Below are positions 15,056 to 34,900 of a DNA stretch of 64,000 nucleotides, piece by piece. Both the position numbers and the translations under genes were made by a program. Numbering within the stretch: position 1 is the stretch's first letter; every line of letters starts with the position of its first letter. The stretch comes from Cyanobium sp. N.Huapi 1H5 (GTDB lineage Bacteria; Cyanobacteriota; Cyanobacteriia; PCC-6307; Cyanobiaceae): assembly GCF_024345535.1 (NCBI RefSeq), contig NZ_JAGQBH010000002.1, positions 124,001-188,000 of the forward strand, written 5' to 3'. Under the pieces are notes generated by a model. The model saw nothing but the letters and a program-made list of their open reading frames with translations, was not told the origin of the DNA and ran no database searches.

Positions 15056-17458
15056 GTGACCCTCTCCGCCGCCCGTCCAGCCACCCCCGCCACGGCGGCG
15101 ACCACTGCTGGGGCAGCGTCTGACGGGGCAACGTCTACCGGAGCAACCTCGGCCGGCAGCGAGGCGATCCCGGCGCCGGCGGCGGATTTCCCGGTCACCG
15201 CTCCGGCGGCCTATCCGGTCTTCTATCGCACCTACAGCCGCAAGACCGCCAGCGGCGGTCGGGAGAGCTGGCACGAGGTGGCCGAGCGCAACCTGGAGGG
15301 CCTGCGGGTGCTGGGCTCGCTCGACGCCTCCGAGGTGGAGCTGATCCGGCGCATGCAGCGCCACCAGATGGCCCTGCCCTCCGGCCGCTGGCTGTGGATC
15401 GGCGGCACCCAATGGATCGAGCAATCCGAGAACTTCTCCGGGGCCTACAACTGCACCTCCACCAACCTGGTGGACTGGGAAGCCTTCGCCCTGATGATGG
15501 ATCTGGCGATGATGGGCTGTGGCACCGGCGCCATCATCGAGCCCCATCTGATCAGCCGGTTGCCGAAGGTGCGCAACACCCTCGTCATCGACGGCGTCAC
15601 CGACATCGGCCTGACCCCGATCGGCTCCCGCCAGCAGCAGACCAGCCACGTGATCGATGGCCATCACGTCAGCGTCCGCGTCGGCGACACCCGGGCCGGC
15701 TGGGTGGAGAGCTACCGGCTGCTGCTCAACCTCTGCAGCGACGAGCGCTTCGACGGTCCGGTCCATGTCTCGGTCGATCTGTCGGATGTGCGGCCGGTGG
15801 GGGAAACCCTCAAGGGCTTCGGTGGCATGGCCAATCCGGTCAAGCTGAAGGACCTCTACGGCCGCGTCGCCCAGATCCTCAACAAGGCACGGGGGCGCCA
15901 GCTCACCTCGGTGGAGTGCTGCCTGCTGATCGATGAGGCGGCGGTCACGATCGTGGCCGGCAACATCCGCCGCAGTGCCGGCATGCGCCAGTTCTGCGCC
16001 GATGACGATTCCGCCCTCGGTGCCAAGGAGAACCTCTGGCAACAGGACGACCAGGGCAACTGGCGCATCGACCCCGAAAGGGACGCCCTGCGCATGGCCA
16101 ACCACACGCGCGTGTTTCACGTGCGCCCCAGCCGCGAGGTGGTGCTGGAAGCGGTCACCAAGCAGTTTCAGTCCGGCGAGGGAGCGATCCAGTTCGCCCC
16201 CGAGGCCATCGCCCGCTCCAACGCCGACCTTCTGACCACGCCGGAGCTGCGCACCGAGTTCATCGGCATCTACTGCGACCAGGGACGGGAGGAAGCCGGC
16301 CGTTGGCTGCAGCTGCACCATCCCGGGATCGGCGCCGACGAGCTCGAACACCGCCTCGGTCGCTACGGCCTCAACCCCTGCGGTGAGATTCTCGGCGCCG
16401 ATTTCCATTGCAACCTGGCGGAGATCCATCTCAACCGGATCGACCCCACCGACCACCAGGCCCAGGAGGATGCCTTCAAGGCCGGTGGTCTAGCGGTGGC
16501 CTGCCTGCTGAACCACCGCTTCGAGGTCGAGCGCTACCGCCGCAGCCGGGCCTGGGACCCGATCGTTGGAGTGAGCTTCACGGGCCTGTTCGACTTCTTC
16601 GTCCACGCCTTCGGCACCACCTGGCTGCAGTGGTGGGAGGCCGGCCGTCCCGACAGCGAGGAGGGCCGGGCGTTCCGCCAGCAGGAGGCGGCCTATCTGT
16701 CCCGCTGGAAGGACTGGGTCCACCAGGCGGTGTGGGACTACTGCGACCGCCATGACATGCGCCGACCCAATCGCTGCACCACCGTCCAGCCGGCCGGCAC
16801 CAAGAGCCTGCTCACCGGCGCCAGCCCCGGCTGGCATCCCCCCAAGGCCCAGCGCTTCATCCGCCGCATCACCTTCCGCAAGAACGATCCGGTGGCCCTG
16901 GCCTGCATGGAGTACGGCTACGCGATCGTTCCGTCCCAGTCCGACAAGGACGAGCAGGGGCGTCTTCTGAATGACCCCTTCGATCCGCGTTGCACCGAAT
17001 GGCTGGTGGAGATCCCCACCGAGGTGAGCTGGGCCAATCTGCCCGGGGCCGACCGGGTGGAGATCAACAACTTCTCGGCCCTGGCCCAGTTCGATTTCTA
17101 CATGCAGGTGCAGCGGCACTACACCACCCACAACACCTCGGCGACGGTGGAATTCCGTGAGCATGAGATCGAGCCCCTGGCCGCCGCCATCCACCACGCC
17201 ATCGAGAACGGGGAGGGCTACATCTCGGCCGCGCTCCTGGCCCGCTTCGATGCCAACGCCACCTTCCCGCGCTTGCCCTTCGAGCCGATCGATCAGGCCA
17301 CCTATGCCCGGATGGTTGTGGAGGTCGAGCAGCGGCGTGTCTGCGGCGACTTCTTTCTCGCCCTGCAGAAATACGACCGCGGCGAATTGATCGAAGCCGG
17401 CCCGGCCGGTTGCGATTCCGACAAGTGCCTGCTGCCGCTCGCCAAACCAGAGGCCTGA
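15056..17458 (+). CDS. nrdJ: adenosylcobalamin-dependent (class II) ribonucleoside-triphosphate reductase
   Basis: Makes deoxynucleotides from ribonucleoside triphosphates with a B12 radical. 800 residues, the size of the monomeric Lactobacillus-type class II enzyme; no intein is present. Key segments: SENFSGAYNCTSTNL for the substrate loop, the active-site NPCGEIL, the TTVQPAGTKSLLTGASPG loop, and the C-terminal CDSDKC thiol pair that re-reduces the site. The start is GTG at 15056; residues 1-45 are an Ala/Thr-rich extension. It stands alone as a transcription unit. It makes DNA synthesis depend on cobalamin, which alpha-cyanobacteria make as pseudocobalamin. Confidence 0.95.
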   Translation: MTLSAARPATPATAATTAGAASDGATSTGATSAGSEAIPAPAADFPVTAPAAYPVFYRTYSRKTASGGRESWHEVAERNLEGLRVLGSLDASEVELIRRMQRHQMALPSGRWLWIGGTQWIEQSENFSGAYNCTSTNLVDWEAFALMMDLAMMGCGTGAIIEPHLISRLPKVRNTLVIDGVTDIGLTPIGSRQQQTSHVIDGHHVSVRVGDTRAGWVESYRLLLNLCSDERFDGPVHVSVDLSDVRPVGETLKGFGGMANPVKLKDLYGRVAQILNKARGRQLTSVECCLLIDEAAVTIVAGNIRRSAGMRQFCADDDSALGAKENLWQQDDQGNWRIDPERDALRMANHTRVFHVRPSREVVLEAVTKQFQSGEGAIQFAPEAIARSNADLLTTPELRTEFIGIYCDQGREEAGRWLQLHHPGIGADELEHRLGRYGLNPCGEILGADFHCNLAEIHLNRIDPTDHQAQEDAFKAGGLAVACLLNHRFEVERYRRSRAWDPIVGVSFTGLFDFFVHAFGTTWLQWWEAGRPDSEEGRAFRQQEAAYLSRWKDWVHQAVWDYCDRHDMRRPNRCTTVQPAGTKSLLTGASPGWHPPKAQRFIRRITFRKNDPVALACMEYGYAIVPSQSDKDEQGRLLNDPFDPRCTEWLVEIPTEVSWANLPGADRVEINNFSALAQFDFYMQVQRHYTTHNTSATVEFREHEIEPLAAAIHHAIENGEGYISAALLARFDANATFPRLPFEPIDQATYARMVVEVEQRRVCGDFFLALQKYDRGELIEAGPAGCDSDKCLLPLAKPEA

Positions 17459-17531: not shown

Positions 17532-18389
17532 CTACTCGGAGGTCGCCGCCAGGGTGCTGATCTCCCGATGGCCGAGGGGGTCGCCGGGATCAATCACGAC
17601 GAGGCGATCGCGACCACTGTTTTTGGCCATCAGCAGGGCCTTGTCGGCGCGGCGGAAGGTGGCGTCGTAGTTCTCATCGGCCTTGTGCTCGGTCAGGCCC
17701 ATGCTGGCGGTGAGCTTCAGCTCCATGTCGTCGATGGAGACGCGCATGCTGCGGATGTTGGCCAGCATGCGCTTGGCCACACCTTCGGCTGTGGCGAGAT
17801 CGGCATCGATCAGCAGGGCCAGGAACTCCTCCCCACCCCAGCGGGCGATGATGTCGTAATGGCGGAGGCTGCCGGAAAGGGCTTTGACGAAATCCACCAG
17901 CATCAGATCACCGGTGGCATGGCCGTATTCGTCGTTGATCAACTTGAAGTGGTCCACATCGAGGATGATCATCGAATAGGTGGAGCCATGCCTGGTGGCG
18001 CGTTGATCCTCCTCAAGGCATCGCTCCGCCATGAAGCGACGGTTGGAGATGCCGGTGAGGGGATCGTGGGTGGAGGCCTCAAACAGGGTGAGATTCACCT
18101 CCTTCAGTGAGGCCTGATAGAGGTCGGAGATGCGCACCACTCTCTTGATCTGGCGCAGCTGCTTCTCATAGCGATTGGTGAGGCTGCGGTTGCTCTCCAT
18201 CACGTGGGACTGGTAGAGATCGGAAATATCGGCAACCCGCTCCAGGCGGTCGACCTGCTCTTCGATGCGGTGCCACAATCTGGCCAGCAGGTTACGGACC
18301 GGATCGTTGGCGTAACGCTCATCGGCCAGAATGGCCATGACTTCCTGTTCCAGTTGGTCGTCAGATTTGGGACCGGAAGTCTCTGGCAT
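17532..18389 (-). CDS. siaD: diguanylate cyclase, SiaD-like (last gene of siaABCD-type operon)
   Basis: A 285-residue soluble GGDEF enzyme that makes c-di-GMP. The catalytic GGEEF is at residues 185-189 and the inhibitory I-site RHYD at 176-179, exactly five residues upstream. The N-terminal 100 residues are helical and carry the repeat ISDLYQ at about 55-60 and 87-92, probably a signalling helix for partner binding. In Pseudomonas aeruginosa SiaD is switched on by unphosphorylated SiaC through its N-terminal helix; gene order here is the same. The start follows the siaC-like stop by one base (TGACATG). Confidence 0.9.
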   Translation of the reverse strand: MPETSGPKSDDQLEQEVMAILADERYANDPVRNLLARLWHRIEEQVDRLERVADISDLYQSHVMESNRSLTNRYEKQLRQIKRVVRISDLYQASLKEVNLTLFEASTHDPLTGISNRRFMAERCLEEDQRATRHGSTYSMIILDVDHFKLINDEYGHATGDLMLVDFVKALSGSLRHYDIIARWGGEEFLALLIDADLATAEGVAKRMLANIRSMRVSIDDMELKLTASMGLTEHKADENYDATFRRADKALLMAKNSGRDRLVVIDPGDPLGHREISTLAATSE

Positions 18390-18390
18390 G

Positions 18391-18786
18391 TCAGGCGTTG
18401 ATGGAAAGGATCAGAAAGGGAAACGTATAGTCTTCCTTGAATTCGGAACCCAGCTCGGCGGACCGGGGGTTTCTGTCATCGAACATCCACTGCACCAGCA
18501 CCTCTTTGCCCTCATCAAACGCCGTCTGCAGCAGATCAAAGATGTCGATCATGAAGCGAATGCTGCTGGTGTTGAGATAGTTGAGATGCAGCTCGAGGGT
18601 CAGTGAGTGGCTGGCGGTGGAGAGGTAGGACTCAATCCACTGGATCAGCTGGTCGTAAAGCTCAAACGAATTCTCAGGATAGGACTCACCGCTCATCACC
18701 ACGACACCCGCCTTCCAGTCGGCACGGATCGAAGGGCTGGACTGGGAGCCCGGCACCGACAGGTTCAGTTCTTCGCTGCTGGTCAT
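18391..18786 (-). CDS. siaC: DUF1987 protein, SiaC-like phospho-switch
   Basis: A 131-residue protein with the DUF1987 (SiaC) fold. Visible motifs: PENSFELYDQLIQWIESYL, LELHLNYLNTSSIRFMIDIFDLL and a C-terminal WMFDDRN. In P. aeruginosa the threonine of the NTSS motif (here about Thr73) is phosphorylated by SiaB and dephosphorylated by SiaA, and the unphosphorylated form activates SiaD. ATG at 18786 is used; an in-frame upstream ATG (18894) would overlap siaB heavily. It starts four bases after the siaB stop. Confidence 0.88.
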   Translation of the reverse strand: MTSSEELNLSVPGSQSSPSIRADWKAGVVVMSGESYPENSFELYDQLIQWIESYLSTASHSLTLELHLNYLNTSSIRFMIDIFDLLQTAFDEGKEVLVQWMFDDRNPRSAELGSEFKEDYTFPFLILSINA

Positions 18787-18790
18787 GGGG

Positions 18791-19339
18791 TCAGATGATG
18801 GCCCGAAGGCTGAAGAAAGCGCGACCGGGCTCAAGGGGGTCAAGGGAGGCCTCCATGGGTTGGCTCGAGCGCCTGGCAATCTCAATGAGACCAAGGCCGG
18901 CGCCCTGGCCCGGGGTCTGGGAGTGGGGCTGGCGCAACTGCTGTTTGTAGAGCACCTTCAACTGGGGCTTGTCGCAGGCGGCGAGTTCGTGGATCCGCGT
19001 CAGCAGGGCCTTTCCATCCTCCATCTCAACGAGGTTACCTGCACACACGGCGTAATGGCCAGCCTCGGCGGCCGCGATCACGACCGTGGCGGAGGACTCG
19101 GCATCGCTGAAGCCATGGCTGGTGGCATAATTCCTGATATTCTGACTCATTTCGATATACACACTGAACACATCCATCACTTCCAGTTCAGGGGCGTGAT
19201 TGGACTCGATGTGTTCCTTGAGGGCTGATCCGATCTCGCCGATCAGCGTGGTGGAAATGGGCCCATTGAAGCAGATGAGAATCCGATAATCACTGAAGAA
19301 CTCCCTCAGGGACATCAGACTGGTGGTGGTGATTGTCAT
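18791..19339 (-). CDS. siaB: SiaB-like kinase (DUF6272, GHKL-type ATP-binding fold)
   Basis: A 182-residue protein matching SiaB-family kinases. The N-box-like segment YIEMSQNIRNYA (about residue 61-72) and a glycine-rich GQGAGLGLIEIARRSS lid (about 146-161) are the ATP-binding elements of a GHKL/anti-sigma-factor-like domain. SiaB phosphorylates the DUF1987 protein SiaC, antagonising the phosphatase SiaA. It lies between the siaA-like and siaC-like genes as in P. aeruginosa. Its ATG overlaps the TGA of a 27-codon frame upstream (ATGA). Confidence 0.85.
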   Translation of the reverse strand: MTITTTSLMSLREFFSDYRILICFNGPISTTLIGEIGSALKEHIESNHAPELEVMDVFSVYIEMSQNIRNYATSHGFSDAESSATVVIAAAEAGHYAVCAGNLVEMEDGKALLTRIHELAACDKPQLKVLYKQQLRQPHSQTPGQGAGLGLIEIARRSSQPMEASLDPLEPGRAFFSLRAII

Positions 19340-19419
19340 CGCTTCAATTCCGAGATGCGCTCTTGGACGGCGTTAACGCGCCTGGAGAAGGATTCGTTGA
19401 TCATGGTCGCCTGGGACAT
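19336..19419 (-). CDS. candidate 27-residue small protein between siaA and siaB
   Basis: ATG at 19419-19417 opens 27 codons ending in a TGA that overlaps the siaB start codon as ATGA. The product begins MSQATMINESFSRRVNAVQE and ends RISELKR. From residue 6 on it would be one amphipathic helix with alternating charged and hydrophobic positions. It fills nearly the whole siaA-siaB gap. It could be a real small partner, a leader that couples siaB translation, or chance. I do not know a homologue. Confidence 0.35.
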   Translation of the reverse strand: MSQATMINESFSRRVNAVQERISELKR

Positions 19420-19431
19420 TCGGTCGGGCCT

Positions 19432-20751
19432 CTAGGAGAAACGGAAGGAAAGAATCGTGATGTCGTCCCGCTGTGGGTGACTGCCGCGGAACTGCTCAAG
19501 GGCATCGGCAAGGGCCTGGCGCTGCTGCTCCAGCGGCTGGCGGGCCAGGCCGATCAGCCATTGCTTGAATTGGTGGCTGCCGAGGGAAAAGCCGTTGTCA
19601 CCGCCGGACTGGTCCAGGAGGCCGTCGGTGGTGAGGTAGTAGGTGCAGTCCGGCTGCAATGGAATGTCGTGGTCCGTGTAGGAGCCGACCCGTTGGTCGC
19701 AGATGGCCCGATGGTCTCCCCTGAGCATGTGCATGGTTTGCCCATCACTCCAATAGAGACTGATCTTTGCACCTGAGAATCTAAGTGTCCTGGCTTCGAA
19801 GTCAAGGCGAACCAGCCCGATGTCCATGCTGGTGGCGATGGACTTGCTCATCCTTGCGCCATGCAGCAAGGTGCGCATCGCGGTGTCGGTGCAGCTCAGG
19901 ATGGCCGCCGGAGAGGTGATGCCCACCTCCATGATCGAGCGATCGATTCCCGCCCTCGCCAGCATGGTCATCATCGCCCCGGAAACCCCGTGGCCGGCGC
20001 AGTCGGCCACACCGGCCAGGCAGTGCCCGCCTTCCGAGTGGAAGATGTAGTAGTCGCCACCAACCGTGTCCCGCGGCAGCCAGAGGATGAAATAGTCCTT
20101 GCCGAAGGTTTCCTGCAGCTGACGGTCCGGCAGGATCGAGCGCTGCAGCAGTCCCGCATAGTTGATCGAGGATTCGATCTGGCGGTTCGCCTCCAGCAGT
20201 TGCTGGTTGCTGGCCTCACCGGCGATCAGGGCCTGCCGCATCTTGGTGAGCACCATGTTGAAGGCCTGCGCCAGCCGGGAGATCTCGTCGTTGCTCCGGA
20301 TCGTCAGCAGACTGCTCATGTCGTCGCTCTCGATCGCACTGGCTTCCCTGACCAGTCGGGCGATCGGCAGGATGATGCGTCTGGCGATGATCTGATACGA
20401 GATGATCGCCAGGATGACCAGCAGCAGGGTCAGAATCAACGAGACATAGATCTCCGCGGACCGGCTGCCGGGAACCATCAGCAGCTGGACGGCGGCGATG
20501 ACCAGATACAGCAGAACAAGGCCGTTGACAATGGCGATCAGCGTGAAGACCTGCTGAATCGAAGCAACCGGTGGTCGAGCAGAGGCATGCTGTCCACCTC
20601 GTGGTTTCCTGGGCCCGAAGCGCTGACCGAAGCGCCGTGAGGGCCCGCCGCCTTCGGACCGCTGGGCAGGGATGGTCATCGCCTCAGGGTTCTTTGGACC
20701 CATGCTGGCCTGCAGGGTGTCGGGCAATCCGGAGAACGCTTCTGTGGCCAT
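19432..20751 (-). CDS. siaA: SiaA-like membrane PP2C phosphatase (HAMP + SpoIIE domain)
   Basis: A 439-residue protein. A cytoplasmic N-terminal tail of about 62 residues is followed by two membrane helices (about 66-92 and 100-122) with a very short connecting loop, a HAMP-like linker (124-172) and a SpoIIE-type PP2C phosphatase domain. Metal-binding residues are visible in RDTVGGDYY (Asp228, Asp233), VADCAGHGVSG (Asp250), TTDGLLDQSG and QRDDITIL. In the model system SiaA dephosphorylates SiaC. Unlike P. aeruginosa SiaA (about 660 residues) there is no periplasmic sensor domain between the helices, so the input must come from the membrane, the HAMP or the N-terminal tail. Confidence 0.9.
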   Translation of the reverse strand: MATEAFSGLPDTLQASMGPKNPEAMTIPAQRSEGGGPSRRFGQRFGPRKPRGGQHASARPPVASIQQVFTLIAIVNGLVLLYLVIAAVQLLMVPGSRSAEIYVSLILTLLLVILAIISYQIIARRIILPIARLVREASAIESDDMSSLLTIRSNDEISRLAQAFNMVLTKMRQALIAGEASNQQLLEANRQIESSINYAGLLQRSILPDRQLQETFGKDYFILWLPRDTVGGDYYIFHSEGGHCLAGVADCAGHGVSGAMMTMLARAGIDRSIMEVGITSPAAILSCTDTAMRTLLHGARMSKSIATSMDIGLVRLDFEARTLRFSGAKISLYWSDGQTMHMLRGDHRAICDQRVGSYTDHDIPLQPDCTYYLTTDGLLDQSGGDNGFSLGSHQFKQWLIGLARQPLEQQRQALADALEQFRGSHPQRDDITILSFRFS

Positions 20752-20879
20752 TCTGAGCCGAACATCCCGGTCGCGCCGCCTTCATCACAACCCGGGTCGT
20801 CGTGGGTTCCGGACCGCCCCGATGCCATGCCGATTTCACCACGTCCGGCCGTGGCCCCGGCGATCAACAGTCGGTCACA

Positions 20880-22016
20880 ATGGATCACCGTCTTTTCCCC
20901 TTCATGCCCCCTCGCCTGCGCATCGCCACCGGCCTGCTGGCGATGCTGCCGGTGGCAGCGGCGGCGGACCGGCTCCACTGGGGGGATGGGATCGTCTTTG
21001 TCACCTCGATCCTCTCGATCATTCCGCTGGCGATCCTGCTCAGCACCGCCACCGAAGAGCTCTCCCTCACCCTCGGGCCTTCGATCGGGGCCCTGCTGAA
21101 TGCCCTGTTCGGCAACGCCACCGAACTGATCATCGCCCTGGCGGCCCTGCGGGCCGGCCTGGTGGACATCGTCAAGGCGAGCATCACGGGCACGGTCATG
21201 GCCAATCTGCTGCTGGCCCTCGGCCTGTCGATGCTGGTCGGTGGGATCGGCCGCAGCGAGCAGCGTTTCCAGCCGGTGGTGGCCCGGGTGAACGGCTCGG
21301 CCATGACCCTGGCCGTCCTGGCGATCCTGATCCCGAGCCTGCGGGGCATGGTGGGTGACGGCGCCGGTGGCCTTGACGCGGGCGCCGCCGAATCCTTCTC
21401 CCTGTTCGTGGCCTGGGTGCTGCTGGCCGTCTACGCCCTCACCCTGCTGTTCTCCCTGAAAACCCACCGCACCCTCTACGCCGTGGCCGAGGCTGACCTG
21501 GGCGTGGAGGGAGAGGAGGCCCACGGCGAAGCCGGCGTCACCAGGCCGCCCCTGCTCCCCTGGGTCGCCGTGCTTCTGGCGGCGACCGTCGGCCTGGCCT
21601 ATGCCTCCGAGCTGTTCGTCGGCGTGGTGGAGACCGTCACCGAATCCCTCGGCCTCTCGGCCCTGTTCACCGGCGTGGTTCTGCTTCCACTGCTGGGCGG
21701 CGCCGCGGAATACCTCACCGCGGTGACCATGGCCCGCAAGGACAAGATGGATCTGGCAGTGTCGGTGGCCCTGGGCTCCACCCTGCTGGTGGGGCTGCTG
21801 GTGGTGCCGGTGCTGCTGCTGGTGGCTCCCCTGCTGGGCCATCCCCTCGACCTCAGCTTCAACGTCTACGAGGTGGTGGCGGTGGCGACGGCGGTGCTGG
21901 TGAGCAACCTGGTCAGCCTCGACGGACGCTCGGACTGGCTGGAGGGGGTGCTGCTGCTGGCGGCCTACGCCATCCTGGCGGCCGGGTTCTTCTTCCAGGG
22001 CAGCCCCGTCCCATGA
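20880..22016 (+). CDS. cax: Ca2+/H+ antiporter (CaCA family, CAX type)
   Basis: A 378-residue protein with about eleven hydrophobic helices, the CAX length. The two alpha-repeats are clear: GNATELIIALAALRAG in the first half and GGAAEYLTAVTMARKDKMDL in the second, whose glutamates carry the ion. An acidic loop (VEGEEAHGEAG) divides the halves. It exports Ca2+ in exchange for protons, with a role in salt or alkaline tolerance known from cyanobacterial CAX. ATG 20880 was chosen. The stop overlaps the start of the next gene as ATGA, so the two are coupled. Confidence 0.94.
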   Translation: MDHRLFPFMPPRLRIATGLLAMLPVAAAADRLHWGDGIVFVTSILSIIPLAILLSTATEELSLTLGPSIGALLNALFGNATELIIALAALRAGLVDIVKASITGTVMANLLLALGLSMLVGGIGRSEQRFQPVVARVNGSAMTLAVLAILIPSLRGMVGDGAGGLDAGAAESFSLFVAWVLLAVYALTLLFSLKTHRTLYAVAEADLGVEGEEAHGEAGVTRPPLLPWVAVLLAATVGLAYASELFVGVVETVTESLGLSALFTGVVLLPLLGGAAEYLTAVTMARKDKMDLAVSVALGSTLLVGLLVVPVLLLVAPLLGHPLDLSFNVYEVVAVATAVLVSNLVSLDGRSDWLEGVLLLAAYAILAAGFFFQGSPVP

Positions 22017-31357: not shown

Positions 31358-34300
31358 TCAGAGGGCCACCACCCGATGGCGACCGGCGGCCTTGGCTGTG
31401 TACATGTTGCGGTCGGCACGGCGCAGAAACAGATCCGCGTCCTCCCCGGCCCCGTGCAGGGCGATGCCGATGGAGAAGGAGGGCTCGATGGTGGCGTCAC
31501 TCCAGCTGATCGGCTCGCTGATGCTGGTCTGGAGGTCTTCGGCGAAGGCGATCGCCTCCTCGAGATGCTCGATCCCCTCCAGCAGCAGCAGAAACTCATC
31601 GCCGCCGATCCGGCCGGCATGGTCACCACGGCGGGTCCGGGCCTGAATCCTGCGGGCCACGGTTCTCAGCACCGCATCACCGCAGGCGTGGCCGTGGCGG
31701 TCGTTGATGCCCTTGAAGCCGTCGCAGTCGCAGAAGAGCAGGGCGAGGGGCTGGGCGCTGTGGGCACGCTCATCGAGAAGCAGCCGCTCCAGCCGCTCAA
31801 GGATGGCGGCGCGGCTGCAGAGGCCCGTGAGGGGATCGGTGTTGGCGCGCTGCAGCAGCAGGCGCTCCTCCAGGACCTGCTCATCCACGGGCTGGAGTGT
31901 GATCACGTAGCCATGGGCCAGGCTCAGGGGGGCCCCGACCGGATCCACCTCGCCGCTGGTGTCGAACCCCTGGGTCTCGAGGCTGCGCAGCTGGTCGCTG
32001 TCGAGCCTGCGGACGCTCAGCTGCACCCAGCTCCAGCCCCCGTCAGGGTCGGCCAGTCGCAGACGGCCCTGGCGGATCGGCCCTGACTCCGCCAGCCACT
32101 GGTCGAGATCCACCGGCCCGGGAGACTCCTCGGCGGAGGCGAACAGATCCCGGAACCCCCGGCCGTGCCATTGCTTCTGTTGCCAGCCCGTCATCGGCTG
32201 CAGCGACGGCGACACCCACACCACCTGCTGGTGGTGGTTCAGCAGCAGCATCACATCGACGATGTTGTCGGCCAGCAGCCGGTACAGGGCCGCCACATCC
32301 GCCAGGCTGCGGGCGGCCCGGTCCTGCTCGGTCACATCCCGCCAGGTGACCGCAAGGATCCCGCGCTCCGGAGTGATCTCGATGTCGAACAGGCGACGAC
32401 CCGTGGCCTGGGGGCCATCGGCGGCGGCGAAGCCGCTGACCGCGGTCGGGACGTTGCGCATGGCGGCATCGACATACAGAGCGATCAGGCCCTTCTGGCC
32501 CATCGACGGGCTGATCGCCAACAGCGTCTGGCCCAGGATCGCCTCGCGGTCCTGCTGCAGAAAGGTGCAGACGGCTTTGTTCACATCCAGAACCCGGAAG
32601 TCTTCGATGCCGCCGTCATGGCGGTGGACCGACTGCAGCAGCAGAAAGAAATCGTGGCTGGCATCCACGGCCGTTCGCAGCAGCCTGAGTTGCTCGAAGG
32701 TGCCGGGCAGATGGGCCCCATCCGCCGGCAGGGTGGATGGCACGGCGCCCCCCTGCGGCGACTTCGCCCAGCGCGCCGGGGGCGAAATCACAGCAGCCTC
32801 CGGATTCAGCAGCAGGGCCTCGAACGCATCAGGTTCCAGGGGAGGCCCGCAGAGAAAGCCCTGAAAGCCGTCGCAGCCGAGATCCTGCAGCATCCGGCGC
32901 TGTTCCTCGGTCTCCACCCCCTCGGCGGTGCATTCCATCCCCAGGCCATGGGCCAGGGCGATGGTGGTGGCCACGATGGTCTGATCGACGGGGGAGCTCG
33001 TCAGTGCCTGCACGAAGGTGCGATCGATCTTGAGGCGATGGACCGGCAGGGTCCGCAGCAGTTCCAGGGAGGAATAGCCGGTTCCGAAGTTGTCGATCGC
33101 GATCCGGAATCCCTGCTCGGCCAGCACCCGCAGCTGTTCACGGGCCAGCAGGGGATTGCGGATCAACGCCGTTTCGGTGATCTCCAGTTCCAGCTGCTCG
33201 GGCCGCAGCTGGAACTCCGCCAGGGTCTCCAGCATGGCGCCGATGAAGCGCCCGTCCGGCAGCTCCAGCTCCCGCGGGGAGACGTTCAGGGCCAGCCGCG
33301 GGGGCCTGAGGCCCGCCGCCTGCCAGTCGCTGATCCGCTGGGCGGTCTGACGCAGGACCCAGGGGGAGAGCTGCAGGATCAGACCACTCTCCTCGGCAAG
33401 CGGCAGGAAATGGCTGGGCGGTACCGAGAGGCTCAGATGGTTGGTCCAGCGCAGCAGGATCTCTCCGCCGGCGAGCTCGTTGGATGAGGTTCGCTGCGGT
33501 TGAATCAGCAGCCGGAACTGGTCGCGATCCAGCGCCTGGGACAGCTGATAGCTCAGCTCCATGCGCTCCTGAATCTGGCGGCTGATCGTGCTGGAGTATG
33601 CGCACACCTGGATGCTTCCCTGGGCCTTCGCCTTCATCAGGGCCGTGTTGGCGCACTGGATCAGGGTCCGGCTCTCCTGGGCGTGTTCGGGATAGGTGGC
33701 GATGCCCACGGAAAAGGTCGGTTCGAGGGGCAGGTTCTTCAGTAAGGGCTGCTGCTGCCGGCCCCACGCCTGCTGCAGGCGCCGGGCGGCACCCATGGCA
33801 TCACCGATGGAGCGGACTCCCTCCTCCATGAGGATCAGAAACTGGTCGCTGCCCAGTCGCGCCAGCCAGTCGCCCGGGTCGATCAGATCCCGCAGCCGGC
33901 GGGCCATGGAGCAGAGCACCCGATCGCCGACATCGGATCCGAAATGGTCGTTGATGTCCCCGAAGCCATCCACATCCAGGCTCAGGAGAGCCATCGAAGC
34001 GTTGTAACGGCGACCGCTCAGGCGTCGGTTCAGCTCCTCCAGGGTGGCGAGCTTGTTGGGAAGTCCGGTGAGGGGGTCTAAGGAGCGCTCACCCGCCACG
34101 GCCTGCATCAGGGCCTGTTCGCCGGTGACATCCCTCAGGGTCCCCACCATGCGCGCTGGGGCACCGCTGTGGTCGTAGCTGAGGTGACCCACGGCCTCCA
34201 CCATCACCTCCGTGCCGTCCTCGAAGCCGAGCCGATGGCAGCTGCGGAACACATCCCCCCGGGTCACGGCCCGCCGCACATCCATGTGCCAGCGGAGGCG

Positions 34301-34900
34301 GTCGTCGGGATGCACCAGGGCGCCGTAGTCCTGGAGCGATGGGTGGGCAGCGCCGCGCTGGCCTCTGCAGAGGCGCCGGGTCTGCTCCGACCAGCGCATG
34401 CGGCCATCGCTGAAGCGCAGATCCCAGACGCCGATGCCGCTGATCGCCGCGCCCTCCTCCAGCAGGGAGAGGGTGTCGGCGAGCTGGAGTTCCCGATGGC
34501 GCTGCTGGGTTTCATCGCTGACGCAGCTCACGATCAGTTGCCGCCCGTCGATCTCCAGGACACGGCTGCGGACGATGACGTCGCGGATGGAGTCATCGCT
34601 GCAGCGATGGCGGGTGTGAAAGGTTCCGCCACCGGAAGCGATCAGCTCGCGGCGACGCTCGGCCACCCAGGCAGCGTCGTGATCGGGATCGGCCTGGATC
34701 GCTTCCGGGGACAGGGCCAGCAGTTCCGTGGTGCTGTAACCCAGATGGGCATGGGCCGAATGATTGCAGGCAAGGAACTGGCCGCTCAGCGCATCTGAGG
34801 CGAGCAGGTCGGTGTCGGTGAGGTCGGCGATCAGGCAGAAATCGGCCAGCCGATCGTGGAGGGTCGCGACGTGGTCTGCCGATCCGCCACGTTCACCCAT
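31358..34900 (-). CDS. multidomain PAS-GGDEF-EAL-PAS-GGDEF c-di-GMP signalling protein
   Basis: 1180 residues, no membrane helices. Order: two PAS-like sensor modules (about 20-140 and 150-265), a degenerate GGDEF (GSDQF instead of GGDEF, about 355), an EAL-like domain (about 445-690), two more PAS-like modules (about 730-1000) and a canonical GGDEF (RIGGDEF near the end) with an RRGD I-site five residues upstream. In the EAL domain most metal ligands persist (ELEITET, KIDRTFV, AEGVET), but EAL reads EIL and the DDFGTG motif reads DNFGTG. So it may make c-di-GMP at the C-terminus while the middle domain degrades or only senses it. It is upstream of the DNA ligase. Confidence 0.9.
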   Translation of the reverse strand: MGERGGSADHVATLHDRLADFCLIADLTDTDLLASDALSGQFLACNHSAHAHLGYSTTELLALSPEAIQADPDHDAAWVAERRRELIASGGGTFHTRHRCSDDSIRDVIVRSRVLEIDGRQLIVSCVSDETQQRHRELQLADTLSLLEEGAAISGIGVWDLRFSDGRMRWSEQTRRLCRGQRGAAHPSLQDYGALVHPDDRLRWHMDVRRAVTRGDVFRSCHRLGFEDGTEVMVEAVGHLSYDHSGAPARMVGTLRDVTGEQALMQAVAGERSLDPLTGLPNKLATLEELNRRLSGRRYNASMALLSLDVDGFGDINDHFGSDVGDRVLCSMARRLRDLIDPGDWLARLGSDQFLILMEEGVRSIGDAMGAARRLQQAWGRQQQPLLKNLPLEPTFSVGIATYPEHAQESRTLIQCANTALMKAKAQGSIQVCAYSSTISRQIQERMELSYQLSQALDRDQFRLLIQPQRTSSNELAGGEILLRWTNHLSLSVPPSHFLPLAEESGLILQLSPWVLRQTAQRISDWQAAGLRPPRLALNVSPRELELPDGRFIGAMLETLAEFQLRPEQLELEITETALIRNPLLAREQLRVLAEQGFRIAIDNFGTGYSSLELLRTLPVHRLKIDRTFVQALTSSPVDQTIVATTIALAHGLGMECTAEGVETEEQRRMLQDLGCDGFQGFLCGPPLEPDAFEALLLNPEAAVISPPARWAKSPQGGAVPSTLPADGAHLPGTFEQLRLLRTAVDASHDFFLLLQSVHRHDGGIEDFRVLDVNKAVCTFLQQDREAILGQTLLAISPSMGQKGLIALYVDAAMRNVPTAVSGFAAADGPQATGRRLFDIEITPERGILAVTWRDVTEQDRAARSLADVAALYRLLADNIVDVMLLLNHHQQVVWVSPSLQPMTGWQQKQWHGRGFRDLFASAEESPGPVDLDQWLAESGPIRQGRLRLADPDGGWSWVQLSVRRLDSDQLRSLETQGFDTSGEVDPVGAPLSLAHGYVITLQPVDEQVLEERLLLQRANTDPLTGLCSRAAILERLERLLLDERAHSAQPLALLFCDCDGFKGINDRHGHACGDAVLRTVARRIQARTRRGDHAGRIGGDEFLLLLEGIEHLEEAIAFAEDLQTSISEPISWSDATIEPSFSIGIALHGAGEDADLFLRRADRNMYTAKAAGRHRVVAL

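What the first reader, a model, noticed from the sequence alone, without database searches (positions are those of the whole stretch)
17532..20751. Complete siaABCD-type phospho-signalling operon in a cyanobacterium
Four minus-strand genes in the order PP2C phosphatase (HAMP + SpoIIE), DUF6272-type kinase, DUF1987 protein and GGDEF cyclase match Pseudomonas aeruginosa siaA-siaB-siaC-siaD in order and domain content. The DUF1987 protein keeps the phospho-acceptor motif NTSS, the cyclase keeps GGEEF and an RxxD I-site, and the genes are spaced by one to four bases from siaB on. In Pseudomonas this circuit controls c-di-GMP and surface aggregation. Its presence here implies a c-di-GMP switch run by threonine phosphorylation in a cyanobacterium usually regarded as planktonic.
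Basis: partly seen in the sequence, partly recalled or inferred. Interest (0 to 1): 0.75.

Follow-up and report, generated by a model that had tools for sequence, protein, structure and literature searches.

The report
Sensor-stripped siaABCD switch in picocyanobacteria
Some picocyanobacteria carry, nearly always at one fixed chromosomal place, the four-gene switch that Pseudomonas uses to clump, with its key working residues kept but with the outside-facing sensor of the first protein missing, which makes it a testable candidate control for colony formation.

Summary
Window 17532-20679 (minus strand) is a complete siaABCD operon. SiaB, SiaC and SiaD pass NCBIfam's equivalog cut-offs, and all four genes match solved P. 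aeruginosa proteins. PP2C metal residues, NTSS, both SiaC-binding stalk S/Q pairs, GGEEF and the I-site core are kept. One claim needs mending: SiaA does not match in domain content. It has no periplasmic sensor: hydropathy puts 12-24 residues between its membrane segments in 29 of 32 cyanobacterial loci, against 194-306 in 55 of 59 proteobacterial ones. The operon was found in one cyanobacterial family only (32 of 400 genomes, 6 of 59 genera). It lies beside nrdJ in 28 of 32 loci. The 29 sets put into trees form one clade for each gene (weak for siaD), so recent transfer or contamination is unlikely. The genome has 19 GGDEF, 12 EAL and 8 PilZ matches, one PilZ in a cellulose-synthase cluster. 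Most likely it is a working SiaC partner switch driving c-di-GMP and aggregation. Phosphorylation, signal and phenotype remain inference.

The parts
19432..20679 (-). siaA: cytoplasmic tail, two-helix membrane hairpin, HAMP, PP2C (SpoIIE) phosphatase; open frame extends to 20751 but that start is not conserved
20323..20559 (-). SiaA residues 41-119 of 415: membrane hairpin in the model (helix 41-68, five-residue turn, helix 74-119 running into HAMP); stands where other SiaA proteins have the periplasmic sensor
19336..19419 (-). 27-codon small frame between siaA and siaB whose stop overlaps the siaB start (ATGA); likely translational coupling (inference), peptide not conserved
18791..19339 (-). 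siaB: DUF6272 kinase of SiaC (function by orthology), 182 aa
18391..18786 (-). siaC: regulatory phosphoprotein (function by orthology), 131 aa
18568..18570 (-). codon of SiaC Thr73, equivalent of phospho-acceptor Thr68 of P. aeruginosa
17532..18389 (-). siaD: diguanylate cyclase with SiaC-binding stalk, 285 aa
17823..17837 (-). GGEEF active-site codons of siaD
15056..17458 (+). nrdJ-like B12 ribonucleotide reductase, convergent neighbour that marks the conserved site
20802..22016 (+). Na/Ca exchanger-family gene (called cax here), divergent neighbour at the other side of the site

Best explanation
This is a functional SiaABCD partner switch. SiaB phosphorylates SiaC on the threonine of NTSS (Thr73), SiaA removes the phosphate, and unphosphorylated SiaC binds two motifs on the SiaD stalk and holds SiaD as an active dimer that makes c-di-GMP, with feedback at the I-site. 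In this lineage SiaA has no periplasmic domain, so it most likely responds to the state of the membrane through its helical hairpin and HAMP domain, or to a cytoplasmic signal. The c-di-GMP probably favours aggregation or matrix production, one plausible receptor being the PilZ-bearing cellulose synthase in the same genome. Shown: orthology, operon order, residue conservation, synteny, absence of the sensor. Inferred: phosphorylation, SiaD activation, signal, receptor, phenotype.
For: SiaB, SiaC, SiaD over equivalog cut-offs. Matches to P. aeruginosa crystal sequences: SiaA-PP2C E 1.7e-88, SiaB 4.6e-57, SiaC 5.5e-39, SiaD 2.9e-71. Kept in 29 of 29 cyanobacterial operons aligned (PAO1 numbering): SiaA D457, D474, G477, D600, G601, D653; SiaC Y65, N67, T68, S69, R103, E110, D114; SiaD D138, D155, R170, D173, E181, E182, R201, K250, R254; stalk S50 in 25, Q54 in 26, S82 in 28, Q86 in 28 of 29. 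Sixty SiaB columns are at least 95% identical over all 87 sequences. Roles of the SiaC and SiaD residues: PMC8457831, sections 7 and 8; of SiaA: PMC7647112, passages and Discussion. Gene order the same in all 32 cyanobacterial loci. Single SiaC and single DUF6272 match in the genome. 19 GGDEF, 12 EAL, 8 PilZ. GH10, HlyD and cellulose synthase with PilZ side by side, like the clusters reported for S. elongatus and Nostoc (PMC12430437, passages). SiaA of P. aeruginosa is reported to sense membrane perturbation (PMC12834913, section 8).
Against: No biochemistry or expression data. SiaB kinase residues were not checked against published mutants. Some SiaC-SiaD contacts differ: in the window SiaD R74 is Gln, R84 Leu, M88 Ser and D194 (I-site) Thr; in 29 of 29 cyanobacterial sequences SiaC D29 is Glu and M75 Ile; SiaC Q10, D79 and L107 are kept in 24, 27 and 26 of 29. 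The paper on membrane sensing replaced the first 336 residues of SiaA as a whole and the chimera did not sustain biofilm, so a SiaA without that region might be insensitive. The operon is dispensable: 21 of 36 other same-genus genomes gave no SiaC match (some are incomplete), G251 has a stop in siaC and a broken siaA, G002 keeps a siaD relic only. The link to cellulose synthase is a correlation among related genomes.
Confidence: 0.8

Rival explanations
1. The switch is unsensed: without a periplasmic domain SiaA is constitutively active, SiaC stays unphosphorylated and SiaD is set by gene expression and I-site feedback; regulation, if any, enters through SiaB (for example ATP level).
For: None of the 29 cyanobacterial SiaA with two membrane segments has a spacing over 24 residues (model); the paper on P. 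aeruginosa places sensing in the N-terminal part.
Against: The hairpin region holds invariant positions across all 15 aligned sequences, which are as little as 53% identical overall; a constitutive phosphatase would not obviously need it. siaB is kept in all 32 loci.
Confidence: 0.3
2. The operon works biochemically but its c-di-GMP serves another output, such as type IV pili, phototaxis or transcription, rather than aggregation.
For: Eight PilZ matches and many other GGDEF/EAL matches offer other receptors and pools. Four of 18 sia-positive genomes of the genus have no full-length match to the cellulose synthase (counted).
Against: Full-length matches to the cellulose synthase are commoner with sia (14 of 18) than without (4 of 23), Fisher p 1.5e-4, though related genomes are not independent and some are incomplete.
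Confidence: 0.35
3. Recent transfer from a proteobacterium, or assembly contamination.
For: Operon GC is 60.0% against 67.5% (nrdJ), 69.1% (cax) and 70.1% for the window; patchy presence.
Against: Same site beside nrdJ in 28 of 32 loci; one cyanobacterial clade of 29 sets with SH-like support 1.0, 1.0, 0.987 for siaA, siaB, siaC and 0.575 for siaD; identities to the window inside the clade fall to 44% (siaD) and 50% (siaB), showing age.
Confidence: 0.03
4. A decaying operon without function in this genome.
For: Relics exist in relatives: siaD fragment in G002 and broken genes in G251.
Against: All four frames are open and the catalytic residues checked are kept in the window.
Confidence: 0.04

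Closest known systems
SiaABCD of Pseudomonas aeruginosa
   Same: Families, catalytic residues, most interface residues, duplicated SiaC-binding motif on the SiaD stalk, I-site core; gene order as stated by the literature (PMC7278518 and PMC7647112, search listing and Discussion)
   Different: SiaA lacks the periplasmic sensor; SiaC Asp29 is Glu and Met75 is Ile in 29 of 29 cyanobacterial sequences. A small frame lies between siaA and siaB in the window; that gap was not compared in Pseudomonas
siaABCD of Halomonas, Stutzerimonas, Telmatospirillum, Caballeronia and other proteobacteria (59 loci in L076-L136)
   Same: Same order; SiaC 50-61% identical to the window's
   Different: SiaA of 599 residues or more in 57 of 59; the other two (L115, L122) are shorter and were not examined further
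HsbR-HsbA-HsbD (P. aeruginosa) and BgrU/V/W-BgrR (Sinorhizobium)
   Same: Partner switches that gate a diguanylate cyclase (PMC7647112 Discussion; PMC8457831 passages)
   Different: Their switch protein is a STAS-domain protein; SiaC is DUF1987, structurally related to STAS
slr1658/slr1659 superfamilies (NCBIfam names, after Synechocystis genes)
   Same: Weak similarity to SiaB and SiaC (E 0.0061 and 0.0023)
   Different: Far below their cut-offs (16 and 18.2 bits against 100)

Membership tests
SiaABCD partner-switch operon | Four genes in order phosphatase, kinase, phosphoprotein, diguanylate cyclase | tested here: met
SiaABCD partner-switch operon | SiaB, SiaC, SiaD over equivalog cut-offs | tested here: met
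   248.8/225, 186.4/150, 304.9/290
SiaABCD partner-switch operon | SiaA over the equivalog cut-off, including the sensor half | tested here: not met
   412.4 against 700 bits, profile 289-657 of 658 only; no periplasmic domain. For this reason SiaA is filed as a variant, not as the SiaA equivalog
SiaABCD partner-switch operon | PP2C metal-binding residues of SiaA | tested here: met
   29 of 29 cyanobacterial sequences; equivalents of G611 F612 invariant in 15 of 15 (mapped by eye through)
SiaABCD partner-switch operon | SiaC phospho-acceptor threonine in NTSS | tested here: met
   29 of 29
SiaABCD partner-switch operon | Other SiaC-SiaD contact residues identical to PAO1 | tested here: inconclusive
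   Most kept; in the window SiaC D29E, M75I and SiaD R74Q, R84L, M88S, R90K, D91E differ
SiaABCD partner-switch operon | Two SiaC-binding motifs on the SiaD stalk (S/Q pairs) | tested here: met
   S56/Q60 and S88/Q92 in the window
SiaABCD partner-switch operon | Active site and I-site of the diguanylate cyclase | tested here: met
   D144, D161, E187, E188, K256, R260; R176-x-x-D179, R207 kept; the equivalent of D194 is T200
SiaABCD partner-switch operon | SiaB phosphorylates and SiaA dephosphorylates SiaC | not testable with these tools
   needs protein assays
SiaABCD partner-switch operon | Controls aggregation or biofilm through c-di-GMP | not testable with these tools
   receptor candidate only

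The most novel reading that the evidence does not exclude
A lineage of picocyanobacteria runs single-cell/colony switching with a sensor-stripped SiaA that reads the membrane itself through a two-helix hairpin, feeding c-di-GMP to a PilZ-bearing cellulose synthase; it would be a natural minimal version showing that the periplasmic domain of SiaA is not needed to sense membrane stress.
Probability: 0.25. Interest if true: 0.65.

Novelty: new variant of a known kind. Interest (0 to 1): 0.45.

Why it matters
It places a threonine-phosphorylation switch for c-di-GMP in picocyanobacteria, whose microcolony formation is described in the literature but whose control was not explained in the passages I read (not an exhaustive search). 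It also offers natural SiaA proteins without the sensor, which could separate sensing by the membrane segment from sensing by the periplasmic domain. In the open-licence library searched, DUF1987 occurs in one paper, and in none together with 'cyanobacteri'; three main SiaABCD papers hold neither 'cyanobact' nor 'synechoc'. That one paper calls DUF1987 widespread among bacteria, and NCBIfam already has equivalog models that name these genes, so presence alone is a modest surprise.

Tried and rejected
Recent transfer or contamination was considered and judged unlikely. Viral carriage: 34 pattern matches among viral contigs, none encoding a relative of SiaC. Extra SiaC or SiaB paralogues: none at E 0.001. 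The small frame between siaA and siaB as a conserved peptide was rejected: length and overlap are kept, residues are not. An IQ-TREE run failed on its thread setting and, repeated, was cut at its time limit without support values, so support values come from FastTree. A SiaC-SiaD complex prediction was not possible, as only single chains can be folded. No fold search of the SiaA model was run. The SiaA model is of middling confidence (mean pLDDT 69.8, pTM 0.55, residues 1-37 under 50).

Sampling limits and dropped rows: the named scan kept the best 80 of 199 relatives. Of the 32 cyanobacterial loci (window, L018-L032, L163-L178), L172 (short contig), L173 (broken genes) and L178 (short siaC) were left out of trees and residue counts. 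Of proteobacterial loci L115 and L122 (short SiaA) were left out; L081 and L109 are copies of L173 and L172. Hydropathy found fewer than two membrane segments in L172, L173 and L178 and in proteobacterial L077, L105, L115, L122; L178 shows a hairpin-like stretch by eye. The phylum sample was 386 genomes with 5 matches, all in the window's genus; it misses the other genera found, so it under-samples the family. The small-frame script stopped at L174, leaving L175-L178 unexamined.
Full report
What is there. The stretch 17532-20751 on the minus strand holds four genes. Pfam gives HAMP plus SpoIIE, DUF6272, SiaC and GGDEF, all over cut-off. NCBIfam names SiaB, SiaC and SiaD as equivalogs over their cut-offs, and gives SiaA as best match at 412.4 bits against a cut-off of 700, with only the second part of the profile aligned. 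The closest solved proteins are the P. aeruginosa SiaA phosphatase domain (6k4e), SiaB (6kko), SiaC (6k4f, 6kko, 6kkp, 7e6g) and SiaD (7e6g).

Corrections to the gene starts. siaC most likely begins at ATG 18786 and has 131 residues. The siaA frame opens at 20751, but at codon 8 of that frame 8 of 14 anchored relatives carry TGA, so ATG 20679 is the likelier start; 13 of 16 rows have ATG there (by eye). The 92-base gap before siaB is not empty: a 27-codon frame ends on the siaB start as ATGA. The script found such a frame of 26-35 codons in 15 of 16 loci of the near group; in the sixteenth (L028) I read a similar one by eye, ending as TGATG. Among the distant loci reached by the script the gap is 0-60 bases and no such frame exceeds 14 codons. 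Its residues vary, so coupling of translation is likelier than a working peptide.

Working residues. On alignments of 29 cyanobacterial and 57 proteobacterial operons plus P. aeruginosa, the PP2C metal residues, the SiaC NTSS loop, the GGEEF site and the I-site core are kept in all cyanobacterial rows. The S/Q pairs of the two stalk motifs are kept in 25 to 28 of 29 rows and in the window. Other contacts differ: SiaC D29 is Glu and M75 is Ile in every cyanobacterial row; in the window SiaD R74 is Gln, R84 Leu, M88 Ser and D194 Thr. Several of these positions also vary among proteobacteria. The roles of these positions are from PMC8457831 (sections 7 and 8) and PMC7647112 (passages and Discussion).

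What differs. Proteobacterial SiaA is 599 residues or longer in 57 of 59 loci, and the first and last membrane segments are 194-306 residues apart (median 288) in the 55 where two were found. In cyanobacteria 30 of 32 are 385-465 residues long, and the spacing is 12-24 (median 18) in the 29 where two were found. The two shorter ones are a short contig and a broken gene; the third without two segments, L178, has a hairpin-like stretch by eye. The predicted structure of the window's SiaA has helix 41-68, a turn of five residues and helix 74-119 running into HAMP, at middling confidence. The periplasmic sensor is therefore absent as a lineage trait.

Where it occurs. In the window's genus 16 of 37 genomes including its own have SiaC, and none of 23 genomes of other families does. 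In the family 32 of 400 genomes do, in 6 of 59 genera. In a phylum sample SiaB matches in 5 of 386, all in the window's genus. Named cyanobacterial hits are Cyanobium, Synechococcus and Aphanothece records and uncultured cyanobacterial genome bins; the others among the best 80 of 199 are proteobacteria. In 28 of 32 cyanobacterial loci siaD and nrdJ are convergent neighbours; the four others show no nrdJ in the stretch held. Nine sia-less genomes of the genus had their nrdJ flank read: in two (G026, G290) nrdJ and cax lie side by side; G002 keeps a siaD fragment in two frames beside nrdJ, which shows loss; the other six show neither sia nor cax in the stretch held.

History. The 29 cyanobacterial sets form one clade against proteobacteria in the joined tree (1.0) and in the siaA, siaB, siaC and siaD trees (1.0, 1.0, 0.987, 0.575). 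Operon GC is 60.0% against 70.1% for the window. An old single acquisition within this family, followed by descent and repeated loss, fits best. The direction is inferred: the trees are unrooted and other bacteria are sampled only through the best hits.

Mechanism. By orthology SiaC should be phosphorylated by SiaB, dephosphorylated by SiaA, and activate SiaD when unphosphorylated. The genome has 19 GGDEF, 12 EAL and 8 PilZ matches. One PilZ sits in a cellulose synthase next to HlyD and GH10 genes, like clusters described for other cyanobacteria (PMC12430437, passages). A match reaching the end of this synthase query is found in 14 of 18 sia-positive and 4 of 23 sia-negative genomes of the genus (my count; Fisher p 1.5e-4); the 18 matches range from 38 to 100% identity, so not all need be orthologues. 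Shared ancestry and incomplete genomes can produce part of this. The input is open. In P. aeruginosa SiaA was tied to membrane perturbation, and replacing its first 336 residues abolished the effect on biofilm (PMC12834913, section 8). The cyanobacterial form keeps only a membrane hairpin.

Verdict. The finding is real, and its core interpretation holds at the level of orthology. It is a known circuit in a little-described lineage with a consistent change at the sensing end, so I file it as a new variant of a known kind.

Noticed in passing
19336-19419 (-): Small frame of 27 codons between siaA and siaB, stop overlapping the siaB start; such a frame found by script in 15 of 16 near-group loci, residues not conserved.
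   Followed up: partly
20728-20751 (-): In 8 of 14 anchored relatives a 7-codon (in L025 2-codon) frame stands just upstream of siaA and ends in TGA at the place where the window reads GGA; possibly a short leader, or an unused ATG.
   Followed up: partly
31358-34900 (-): 1180-residue frame holding GGDEF, EAL and a second, C-terminal GGDEF match (positions).
   Followed up: no
L191:10543-11246 (genome G002): siaD remnant in two frames beside nrdJ, with no siaA, siaB or siaC match in the stretch and no SiaC in the genome: loss.
   Followed up: partly
L173 (genome G251): siaC with an in-frame TAA and a shortened siaA frame: a decaying copy.
   Followed up: no
L137:2574-7312: GH10, HlyD and cellulose synthase with PilZ side by side in the window's genome.
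   Followed up: partly
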